Shown piece by piece: positions 18,508 through 20,886 of a stretch of 40,530 nt of DNA (position 1 is its first letter; every line of letters begins with the position of its first letter). The translations under genes were made by a program, and so were the position numbers. This stretch comes from a virus: positions 1 through 40,530 of the IMG/VR virus record IMGVR_UViG_3300025131_000113; one strand, 5' to 3'. Below the pieces are notes generated by a model that was given only the letters and a program-made list of their open reading frames with translations, was not told the origin of the DNA and made no database searches.

Positions 18508-19377
18508 ATGTCAGACTTTGAGATGCAGATCGACGAGAAGGTCATCGAGCGGCTGCTTTCTGAAGAGAGCGCTCTTCGTGTTCCTGTTCAAAAGTTAGAT
18601 CGCGATCTAGCTAAAGCGGCCAGTTACCTCACGGCGATTGAGGCGAGGTATTTGGTCGATTCCTACTATGCCATGCAAGCTGGGCGCATTCGCGCCAATA
18701 ACCAAATCCGCGCCCTCACGCAGAGCGGCGAAGCGCACGAGATCATTGCTTGGCTTTCGACCGAGAGCCGTGTTCTGGAGGAGGGTGTCAAGCGCACGCT
18801 GGGTGCGTATTCGGCGGACCATCCTGTTGGTAAGAGGATGCGTACCGTCGTGGGCGTTGGGCCGGTTATTGCCGCTGGTTTACTTGCGCACATCGACATT
18901 ACGAGGGCGCCGACTGCTGGTGCGATTTGGCGGTATGCCGGCCTGGATCCAACCAGCGAGTGGAAGAAGGGCGAAAAGCGTCCGCACAATGCTTCGTTGA
19001 AGACGCTTTGTTGGAAGTTGGGCGAAAGTTTCGTCAAGGTTTGCAACCACAAGGATGCGGTTTACGGGAAGCTTTACCAAGAGCGCAAGGAATCGGAGAT
19101 CGCCAAGAACGAGGCTGGCATGTTTGCCGATCAGGCAGCGGCCAAGCTGGAGAAGTTTAAGATCGGCAAGACGACCGATGCGTACAAGGCGTATTCCGTG
19201 GGCAAGCTTCCACCGGCCCATATCCATGCGCGTGCGAAACGCGTTGCGGTGAAGATGTTCTTGTCGCATTTGCACCAGGTCTGGCATGAGGTTGAGTTTG
19301 GCAAGACGGCACCGGTGCCGTATGTGTTTGAGTTCGCAGACAAGGAGCATGTTCACAAGATCGAGCCGAATTGGTAG
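18508..19377 (+). CDS. IS110-type Transposase_20 domain protein without RuvC domain
   Basis: A 289-residue protein. Residues about 1-100 are helical and coiled-coil-like. Residues about 108-180 carry the IS116/IS110/IS902 C-terminal domain: GKRMRTVVGVGPVIAAGLLA (helix-hairpin-helix, GVGP at 116-119), then GAIWRYAGLDP (138-148) and a basic NASLKTLCWKLGESFVKV. The DEDD RuvC domain that gives IS110 transposases half of their active site is absent, so it is unlikely to be a working transposase. A DNA- or RNA-binding role is more likely. Its TAG stop is the first bases of the alternating repeat array that follows. Confidence 0.7.
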   Translation: MSDFEMQIDEKVIERLLSEESALRVPVQKLDRDLAKAASYLTAIEARYLVDSYYAMQAGRIRANNQIRALTQSGEAHEIIAWLSTESRVLEEGVKRTLGAYSADHPVGKRMRTVVGVGPVIAAGLLAHIDITRAPTAGAIWRYAGLDPTSEWKKGEKRPHNASLKTLCWKLGESFVKVCNHKDAVYGKLYQERKESEIAKNEAGMFADQAAAKLEKFKIGKTTDAYKAYSVGKLPPAHIHARAKRVAVKMFLSHLHQVWHEVEFGKTAPVPYVFEFADKEHVHKIEPNW

Positions 19378-19690
19378 AGATCCAGGTTACCAGAGAGAAC
19401 CAAATAGATGGAGAGCGAACCAATTGAGCAGAGAGATCCATCGTCTGAGAGCGAACCAGGTCAGTAGAGAGATCCATTCCCGATGAGCGAACCATCCGAC
19501 CGGAGAGATCCAGGGTACGAGAGCGAACCATTTCCGAAGAGAGATTCATGAGAGGCGAGCGAACCATGGAGTCCGAGAGATCCACATGACACGAGCGAAC
19601 CAGATGCGCTGAGAGATCCATTGAAGGAGAGCGAACCAACTTGCCAGAGAGATTCATTACCGATGAGCGAACCAAGCAAATTGAGAGGCT
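19377..19690. repeat. Array of two alternating 10-bp repeats with 8-bp spacers
   Basis: Seventeen units with an 18-bp period: A = GAGAGATCCA (ends at 19384, 19440, 19476, 19512, 19548, 19584, 19620, 19656) alternates strictly with B = GAGCGAACCA (ends at 19402, 19422, 19458, 19494, 19530, 19566, 19602, 19638, 19674). The 8 bases between are all different. Two A copies read GAGAGATTCA, the first B reads GAGAGAACCA, and only the gap between the first two B-type units is irregular (20 bp). A decayed unit (GAGAGGCT) closes the array. The array begins at the stop codon of the IS110-like gene and ends about 60 bases before the methyltransferase gene. No stop-free reading frame on the plus strand. 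Confidence 0.95.
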
Positions 19691-19705
19691 AATAACATGG
19701 GTATT

Positions 19706-19733
19706 TTGCATTGATGCTATTGAGTAGTCTAAT
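19706..19733 (+). promoter_or_regulatory. Candidate methyltransferase promoter
   Basis: TTGCAT (19706-19711), 16 bases, TCTAAT (19728-19733), 20 bases before the ATG of the methyltransferase gene. It would let this gene be expressed independently of the array upstream. Confidence 0.45.
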
Positions 19734-19752: not shown

Positions 19753-20886
19753 ATGCTGACTACTCTTGATCTGTTTGCGGGGATCGGTGGCTTTGCGCTA
19801 GGGCTCGAAGCCACCGATTTCTTTCGTACAACATGCTTCGTGGAGAACGAACCGTATTGCCAAGCTGTGCTACAGTACCACTGGCCCGAAGTCCCTGTGC
19901 TAGGAGATATAAAGAATGTCCAGAGATCCGATCTCCCAGACCCCAGCCCAGATGTCATTGTTGGAGGATTCCCCTGTCAGCCGTTCAGCCACGCAGGAAA
20001 GCAGCGCGCCCAAGACGACCCCAGACATCTCTGGCCGGAAATGTTTAGACTTATCAGGGAATGCCGGCCCACTTGGGTTATTGGAGAAAATGTTGCTGGA
20101 ATCATCAAGCTGGGCTTGGACGAAGTACTCTCTGACTTGGAGAGCGAAGGCTACGCCACAAGGACGTTTAATATTCCAGCTTGCGCGGTTGGCGCCCCGC
20201 ACATCCGCCAACGGCTCTGGATTGTTGCACACGCCGATAGCCAAGGCGAACCAGATGGCGACACGAGACAAGGGCAGTTGGGGTTCGGTGTGGCCGACGC
20301 CGACAGGTCAGGACAATCCGCAAGTGCGGGGCGTGGGCAAGACAATCGGAACGAAGCGCGGGACGACTTTGGGCGGCGCGGTGAGGATGTGGCAGACGCC
20401 AGTAGCGGACGACAGCGTAGATCGGGCAAAGGGCAAATGGAACAGTCGTGGAGAGCCGAAACTAAGCGCACAAGTGAAACTCTGGCCGACACCGACGAAA
20501 CAGGATGCGAGCAACAACGGCGGTCCAAGTCAGCACAAGAGGAACAGCCTTCCCTTGAACACGGCGGTTCTCTATCCGACGCCGAGCGTCCAAGAACCAG
20601 GATGGAAAAATCTAGAGATAGTGGACAAGGACGGCAATCCGCCGACACACGCCAATCAAAGGTTTTACGACAAGAAGACGGGGCGTGTAGTTCAGAAGGG
20701 CTTGCAGCAAGTGGTGACAGACCCGAAGTCTGGTGGAAAGTTGAACCCCCAGTGGGTCGCGTGGTTGATGGGTTACCCAACCGAGTACCTCAACTCCGTG
20801 CCTTGGGAAACTCGATCATCCCGCAGATCGCGCAAGAAATAGGGAATGCAATTAAGGTGACGTATGAGACAAAAACTTCCGGATAG
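19753..20886 (+). CDS. DNA cytosine-5 methyltransferase (Dcm-like)
   Basis: A 377-residue enzyme that methylates cytosine in DNA with S-adenosylmethionine. Motif I is DLFAGIGGFALGL (residues 6-18), motif IV GGFPCQPFSHAGK with catalytic Cys75, motif VI GENVAG (111-116), motif VIII IRQRLWIVA (151-159), and motif X RALGNSIIPQIAQEIG near the C-terminus. Between VIII and X, residues about 165-325 are low-complexity, rich in Asp, Gly, Arg, Ser and Gln; this is where another reading frame is also open (see the entry at 19916-20842). It probably protects phage DNA from host restriction. Target sequence cannot be read from the protein. Confidence 0.85.
   Translation: MLTTLDLFAGIGGFALGLEATDFFRTTCFVENEPYCQAVLQYHWPEVPVLGDIKNVQRSDLPDPSPDVIVGGFPCQPFSHAGKQRAQDDPRHLWPEMFRLIRECRPTWVIGENVAGIIKLGLDEVLSDLESEGYATRTFNIPACAVGAPHIRQRLWIVAHADSQGEPDGDTRQGQLGFGVADADRSGQSASAGRGQDNRNEARDDFGRRGEDVADASSGRQRRSGKGQMEQSWRAETKRTSETLADTDETGCEQQRRSKSAQEEQPSLEHGGSLSDAERPRTRMEKSRDSGQGRQSADTRQSKVLRQEDGACSSEGLAASGDRPEVWWKVEPPVGRVVDGLPNRVPQLRALGNSIIPQIAQEIGNAIKVTYETKTSG
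19916..20842 (+). CDS. Overlapping WPTP-repeat protein inside the methyltransferase gene
   Basis: A 308-residue ORF in the +1 frame, wholly inside the methyltransferase gene. It has its own ribosome binding site (AGGAGA nine bases before the ATG). Recognisable pieces are YSLTWRAKATPQGRLIFQL, then repeats of WPTPT, WQTPV and YPTPS, and LNPQWVAWLMGYPTEY near the end. As far as I recall, proteins with WPTPT...LNPEWVEWLMGFP occur next to phage cytosine methyltransferases. So both frames look like members of real families. Alternatively this is a frame kept open by the ADAD/WPTP codon pattern alone. Confidence 0.55.
   Translation: MSRDPISQTPAQMSLLEDSPVSRSATQESSAPKTTPDISGRKCLDLSGNAGPLGLLEKMLLESSSWAWTKYSLTWRAKATPQGRLIFQLARLAPRTSANGSGLLHTPIAKANQMATRDKGSWGSVWPTPTGQDNPQVRGVGKTIGTKRGTTLGGAVRMWQTPVADDSVDRAKGKWNSRGEPKLSAQVKLWPTPTKQDASNNGGPSQHKRNSLPLNTAVLYPTPSVQEPGWKNLEIVDKDGNPPTHANQRFYDKKTGRVVQKGLQQVVTDPKSGGKLNPQWVAWLMGYPTEYLNSVPWETRSSRRSRKK

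What the first reader, a model, noticed from the sequence alone, without database searches (positions are those of the whole stretch)
19377..19690. Strictly alternating two-repeat array with 8-bp unique spacers
Seventeen 10-bp repeats of two types (GAGAGATCCA and GAGCGAACCA) alternate A-B-A-B on an 18-bp period, each followed by 8 bases that differ every time. Only the gap between the first two B-type units breaks the period. The repeats are almost invariant while the spacers are not, so selection acts on a paired-motif scaffold. It is not a CRISPR array (repeats and spacers far too short), and no known phage iteron set I know of alternates two motifs like this. Possible readings are a two-protein or heterodimer binding array (centromere- or origin-like), an RNA with interspersed variable segments, or a decoy array for host factors.
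Basis: seen in the sequence. Interest (0 to 1): 0.95.

Follow-up and report, generated by a model that had tools for sequence, protein, structure and literature searches.

The report
Phage TIGR-TasA guide RNA array
The strange alternating repeats are a TIGR array, a recently described CRISPR-like bank of tiny paired guides that sits next to its guide-binding protein (TasA) in a phage from environmental DNA; related phages suggest that each pair of guides spells one continuous 16-letter stretch of protein-coding DNA, which hints at what these systems target.

Summary
In detail: 17 ten-base repeats of two types at 19375-19674 with 8-nt spacers, plus a truncated 18th at 19683-19687. The array starts inside the stop codon of the 289-aa "IS110-like" gene. 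The interpretation changes. The gene is not a transposase. By sequence (TasH E=2.7e-13, TasR 1.3e-9) and by fold it is a Tas protein without a nuclease domain (TasA), and the array is a dual-repeat TIGR array (Faure et al., Science 2025): edge GAGAGATCCA, spacer A, loop GAGCGAACCA, spacer B, 36 nt per guide. My parser found such an array near the tas gene in 151 of 159 loci screened; no control phage segment came close. Known kind, new member. Beyond the published account: (1) repeats are fixed while spacers carry almost no shared information, and guides are shared between arrays as whole edge-A-loop-B units; (2) over 1469 guides from 129 arrays, spacer B followed by the reverse complement of spacer A reads as one contiguous coding stretch (reading-frame coherence z=5.0, 0/2000 permutations; junction dinucleotide z=3.2). 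Off-register and other-orientation controls are flat. So natural guides appear to match uninterrupted 16-bp protein-coding DNA, with the geometry measured in vitro. I did not identify the actual targets.

The parts
18508..19377 (+). tasA: 289-aa Nop-domain TIGR-associated protein without nuclease domain (PHROGs calls the family 'transposase')
   Evidence: PDB TasH 2.7e-13 and TasR 1.3e-9 by sequence; AF2 model all-helical, Foldseek best hits all TasH/TasR; Pfam Transposase_20 only, no RuvC/HNH/DEDD hit; phrog_4285 full length
19375..19384 (+). first edge repeat, TAGAGATCCA, overlapping the tasA stop codon
   Evidence: sequence; matches the published '5'-truncated edge repeat' start
19375..19687 (+). 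dual-repeat TIGR array: 8 edge and 9 loop repeats with 8-nt spacers (one of 10 nt), then a truncated edge GAGAG
19385..19430 (+). irregular first part: spacer GGTTACCA, loop-type GAGAGAACCA, 10-nt spacer AATAGATGGA, loop GAGCGAACCA, spacer ATTGAGCA; looks like two units fused by deletion (inferred)
   Evidence: ATTGAGCA and AATAGATG each occur as intact spacer B in L010
19431..19466 (+). predicted 36-nt guide unit: A=TCGTCTGA, B=GGTCAGTA
   Evidence: shared with L027 (3 differences in 16)
19467..19502 (+). predicted guide unit: A=TTCCCGAT, B=TCCGACCG
19503..19538 (+). predicted guide unit: A=GGGTACGA, B=TTTCCGAA
19539..19574 (+). predicted guide unit: A=TGAGAGGC, B=TGGAGTCC
19575..19610 (+). 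predicted guide unit: A=CATGACAC, B=GATGCGCT (predicted target GATGCGCTGTGTCATG)
   Evidence: same unit in L027 with one difference
19611..19646 (+). predicted guide unit: A=TTGAAGGA, B=ACTTGCCA
19647..19682 (+). predicted guide unit: A=TTACCGAT, B=AGCAAATT
19683..19687 (+). 3'-truncated edge repeat GAGAG closing the array
   Evidence: sequence; matches the published array end

Best explanation
A phage-encoded TIGR-TasA system. Shown here: the gene is a nuclease-less Nop-domain Tas protein, and the array that begins in its stop codon is a dual-repeat TIGR array (edge GAGAGATCCA, loop GAGCGAACCA, 8-nt spacers, 36-nt unit). Inferred from the published systems: the array is co-transcribed with tasA and cut within the edge repeats into 36-nt tigRNAs; a TasA dimer holds one tigRNA by the box C/D-like ends of the two repeats; spacers A and B pair with opposite strands of a contiguous 16-bp DNA site (B followed by reverse complement of A) and bend it. 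With no nuclease, TasA should act by occupying or bending the target, for example blocking transcription or replication of a competing phage or a host gene. That last step is the least certain.
For: TasH/TasR are the only PDB sequence hits; all 11 Foldseek hits at E<=0.001 are TasH or TasR, IS621 comes next at E 0.07. The array matches the published definition: two alternating 8-12-nt repeats, ~9-nt spacers, 36-nt unit, truncated edge at both ends. My parser finds such arrays near the tas gene in 86 of 90 and 65 of 69 loci, control maximum score 17. The last base of the two repeats agrees in 129 of 130 scorable arrays (A/A 108, G/G 21, A/G 1), as expected if one symmetric dimer reads both. Isolated shared guide pairs lie in the edge-A-loop-B register: 40 (plus 17 with one unclassified repeat) against 5 outside the window clade, 3 against 0 within it. 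Natural guides show the published geometry: coding-phase coherence z=4.98 at gap 0 only, replicated in two sets (z 3.2 and 3.8), junction dinucleotide z=3.24 only for B|rc(A).
Against: No transcription or processing data. No strong terminator after the array and no sigma-70-like promoter found. No natural target was identified in 1.76 Mb of Tas-phage contigs or by five scans of IMG/VR, one of them a mixed-pair control. Box D here is GA(G), not the UG of TasR arrays. The guide-geometry statistics come from the family; the window clade alone (89 guides) is too small (z 0.7).
Confidence: 0.93

Rival explanations
1. IS110/IS1111 transposon with a bridge-RNA region; the array is a relic or part of its ends.
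For: Pfam Transposase_20 and PHROGs 'transposase' hits; the Nop/Tnp domain is shared with IS110.
Against: No DEDD catalytic domain: no Pfam hit, all-helical model. TasH/TasR score far better than IS621 in sequence and fold. The gene keeps its array in 151 of 159 loci, and bridge RNAs are single units, not arrays.
Confidence: 0.02
2. A DNA-level binding array (iterons, centromere or decoy) for a two-faced or heterodimeric protein.
For: Regular 18-bp spacing, near-invariant motifs, no strong RNA fold (z +1.5).
Against: Does not explain why spacers are inherited in edge-A-loop-B pairs or why paired spacers read as contiguous coding DNA on opposite strands. The array is tied to a tas gene in nearly all loci.
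Confidence: 0.03
3. Coding sequence of a repetitive protein (184-aa minus-strand ORF 19157-19711).
For: 36-nt units keep frame; one minus frame is open across the window array and one or two are open in some relatives.
Against: All three minus frames have stops in L027, L010 and L012; 9- and 10-nt spacers break frame; spacer columns carry 0.01-0.20 bits, so no amino acid pattern.
Confidence: 0.01
4. A TIGR-TasA system whose guides regulate the phage's own genome or its integration, rather than other genomes.
For: TasA-induced DNA bending has been suggested to help integrases (Faure et al., Discussion).
Against: No guide hits its own record at gap 0 with spacer B exact and at most one mismatch in spacer A, and no exact-match excess exists in Tas phages as a group.
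Confidence: 0.15

Closest known systems
TIGR-TasA (dual-repeat TIGR arrays with nuclease-less Tas; e.g. Flavonifractor plautii FpTIGR; Faure et al. 2025, PMC12045711)
   Same: Nop-only protein, adjacent array of two alternating short repeats, 36-nt unit, truncated edges at both ends, matching ends of the two repeats
   Different: 8-nt rather than 9-nt spacers; box D is GA(G); unit fusion near the start; no clear terminator; from an environmental phage of unknown host
SpTIGR-TasH of Salicola phage CGphi29
   Same: phage-borne, 8-nt spacers, homologous Nop domain, array downstream of the gene
   Different: TasH carries an N-terminal HNH nuclease; repeats AAGACAACCA/AAGCGAGCCA
TIGR-TasR (PDB 9mty)
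   Same: Nop fold and tandem-spacer guide geometry
   Different: RuvC nuclease, 9-nt spacers, UG...CCA repeats
IS110-family bridge-RNA recombinases (IS621)
   Same: shared Nop-like RNA-binding domain; Transposase_20 hit
   Different: DEDD catalytic domain, single bridge RNA, mobile ends; weaker match (E 0.07)
CRISPR arrays
   Same: fixed repeats with variable spacers
   Different: two 10-nt repeats and 8-nt half-spacers; no cas genes among the neighbours examined

Membership tests
TIGR-Tas | Nop-domain Tas protein next to the array | tested here: met
TIGR-Tas | two distinct alternating 8-12-nt repeats with short (8-12 nt) variable spacers, about 36-nt unit | tested here: met
   10-nt repeats, 8-nt spacers, period 36
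TIGR-Tas | array starts and ends with truncated edge repeats | tested here: met
   TAGAGATCCA at 19375, GAGAG at 19683
TIGR-Tas | rho-independent terminator after the array (described as typical, not obligatory) | tested here: not met
   none found by a simple consensus scan within about 200 bp
TIGR-Tas | box C/D-like ends shared and covarying between the two repeats | tested here: met
   last base concordant in 129 of 130 scorable arrays; both window repeats GAG...CCA
TIGR-Tas | 36-nt tigRNAs produced and bound by Tas | not testable with these tools
   needs small-RNA sequencing
TIGR-Tas | paired spacers address opposite strands of one contiguous target | tested here: met
   statistically, across 1469 family guides; window clade alone underpowered
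TasA subtype | no RuvC or HNH nuclease | tested here: met
   no Pfam hit; all-helical model with no nuclease fold
IS110 transposase | N-terminal DEDD/RuvC-like catalytic domain | tested here: not met
IS110 transposase | mobile ends and insertion-site duplication | not tested
   no evidence of transposition sought beyond shared synteny in close relatives
CRISPR | 25-36-nt repeats with spacers of similar size | tested here: not met
tasParB operon variant | parB-like gene in operon with tasA | tested here: not met
   no ParB domain in the neighbouring ORFs examined

The most novel reading that the evidence does not exclude
Natural TIGR guides are split copies of contiguous 16-bp stretches of protein-coding DNA: spacer B is the left half on one strand and spacer A the right half on the other, with no gap. 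Guides turn over as whole edge-A-loop-B units while the flanks stay 84-90% identical. Phages would then hold a rapidly changing, possibly captured, record of coding targets, although no adaptation genes are known.
Probability: 0.7. Interest if true: 0.8.

Novelty: new member of a known kind. Interest (0 to 1): 0.55.

Why it matters
The discovery paper states that genuine targets and the origin of TIGR spacers are unknown and saw no obvious covariation of spacers A and B (PMC12045711). The analysis here finds the expected linkage in natural arrays: the two spacers join into contiguous coding DNA in exactly the order inferred from in vitro cleavage. That gives a rule for reconstructing the 16-bp natural targets, says they are largely within genes, and makes target identification a matter of searching co-sampled phage and host sequence. 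It also suggests that many environmental phage genes now filed as transposases (phrog_4285) are RNA-guided Tas proteins.

Tried and rejected
Rfam scan of the window: nothing. RNA fold of the array: not more stable than shuffles. Targets inside Tas-phage contigs: no exact-match excess over control orientations and gaps. Five IMG/VR scans for guide targets: four used conserved guides, one a deliberately mixed control pair. Window guide 5 gave five GH24-like lysozymes at gap 1 and an L027/L010 guide gave at least 22 members of one protein family (motif NKQILEGYQILNVLSG; looks like the pyrimidine-dimer glycosylase family, from memory, not searched) at gap 1, but the mixed control also gave a cluster of five and gap 1 is the wrong phase for the family, so I treat these as conserved-motif coincidences. 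A guide shared by distant arrays L423/L462 gave no family-level cluster. No 3-base periodicity of differences between homologous spacers. A stop-codon-only version of the coherence test shows no signal (z 0.24); simulation gives z 1.9-2.6 for it if 30% of guides are coding and about 4 at 100%, so this counts mildly against a large coding fraction. A codon table from unrelated phages gives a weaker signal (z 2.0).

Full report
What is there. It has 17 ten-base units, edge type GAGAGATCCA and loop type GAGCGAACCA, with 8-nt spacers from 19375, where the first edge overlaps the stop codon of the upstream gene, to 19674, then a last spacer and a stub GAGAG at 19683-19687. One place is irregular (two loop units in a row with a 10-nt spacer at 19403-19412). 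The motif occurs nowhere else in the window. In the close clade, repeat columns are nearly invariant and all 16 spacer columns carry at most 0.2 bits. A chain parser scores this array 220; 219 control pieces of other phage contigs never exceed 17.

What the gene is. ORF 18508-19377 hits Pfam Transposase_20 weakly and a PHROG labelled transposase, which explains 'IS110-like'. Against the PDB its only hits are TasH (2.7e-13) and TasR (1.3e-9). The AlphaFold2 model (pLDDT 79.6, pTM 0.74, all helical) matches TasH and TasR in the first eleven places (E 1.7e-6 to 7.9e-4), IS621 only at 0.07. There is no RuvC, HNH or DEDD domain, so it is TasA-type.

What the array is. The TIGR-Tas paper (PMC12045711; [quoted passage not shown] the window fits each point except that no clear terminator was found. 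The published Salicola phage CGphi29 TasH array and an unannotated array in Microcystis phage Mvi-JY20 look alike.

Relatives. Sequence scans gave 119 and then 471 viral relatives (80 loci kept each time) and 9 in bacterial genome records. Arrays were found in 86 of 90 and 65 of 69 loci. Repeats diverge between clades, but their last base agrees within arrays (A/A 108, G/G 21, A/G 1), as for one symmetric reader. Flanks of the window and L027 are 84-90% identical in DNA, yet only two of the window's guides recur in L027: guides turn over much faster than the locus.

Register. Isolated guide pairs shared between arrays fall in the edge-A-loop-B register (40 plus 17 with one unclassified repeat, against 5 in other clades; 3 against 0 in the window clade). 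Thus the pair, the predicted tigRNA, is the evolving unit. The edge is GAGAGATCCA in the window clade and GAnCGAGYCA-like in the others.

Natural guide geometry. From the published 3' overhangs and C-5 rule I derived the target as B followed by reverse complement of A. I then asked whether this concatenation reads as one piece of coding DNA, using a codon model of the Tas phages and permuting A among units of the same array. For 1469 deduplicated guides from 129 arrays the coherence is z=4.98 at gap 0 (0 of 2000 permutations reach it), -2.4 at gap 1, -2.5 at gap 2; off-register pairs give 0.4, 0.3, -0.2 and same-strand pairing 1.1, -1.7, 0.3. The signal was first seen in a smaller set and replicated in guides from an independent scan (z 3.76; first set 3.19). 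Simulated coding 16-mers behave the same way, and the observed size matches roughly a third of guides with Tas-phage-like codons. The phase alone would also allow rc(A)-NN-B (z 4.94), but the junction dinucleotide supports B|rc(A) contiguity (z 3.24, 0 of 1000; rc(A)|B -1.7; B|A -0.7), with a gain (0.0114) close to simulated full contiguity (0.0124). Cautions: a stop-codon-only model shows no signal, an unrelated codon table gives a weaker one, a direct gap-0-versus-gap-3 contrast is only z 1.2, and the window clade alone is underpowered.

Targets. No exact-match excess appears in 1.76 Mb of Tas-phage contigs, and the clusters seen in IMG/VR scans are matched by a mixed-pair control or lie at the wrong gap. 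So the targets are probably other genomes, not identified here.

Conclusion. A new member of the known TIGR-TasA kind, with family-level evidence that natural guides match contiguous coding DNA. Identity and anatomy are shown here; transcription, processing, binding and biological role are inferred from the characterised relatives.

Noticed in passing
window 18508-19377 (phrog_4285): PHROGs labels this Tas family 'transposase, integration and excision'; many phage genes so annotated are probably RNA-guided Tas proteins.
   Followed up: partly
L024:4699-5019 (Microcystis phage Mvi-JY20, PP438412.1): Unannotated dual-repeat array (ACGAAACCC / ATGCGAGCC) downstream of a Tas homologue in an isolated phage with a known host, followed by a hairpin and T-run; a good experimental system.
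   Followed up: partly
L014, L015; L068, L076, L078, L080: Tas homologues with no clear array by my parser; L014/L015 are about 72% identical to the window protein but their array is gone or degenerate.
   Followed up: no
L045, L046; L037, L059, L106; L038, L039: Arrays with unit lengths of 34, 35 or 38 nt instead of 36; in L045/L046 the parser alternates 6- and 8-nt spacers.
   Followed up: no
L047, L066, L085, L391, L423, L436: Very long arrays (96 to about 130 half-units, i.e. some 50-65 guides).
   Followed up: no
window 19753-20886: C5 cytosine methyltransferase gene right after the array, kept in L027 and, partly, L013 (75-84% identity).
   Followed up: no
L423 unit 12 and L462 unit 83: Nearly the same guide (AGTTCGAC/TTGCAGCC vs AGTTTGAC/TTGCAGCC) in arrays of phages with different repeats; possible independent targeting of one site.
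   Followed up: partly
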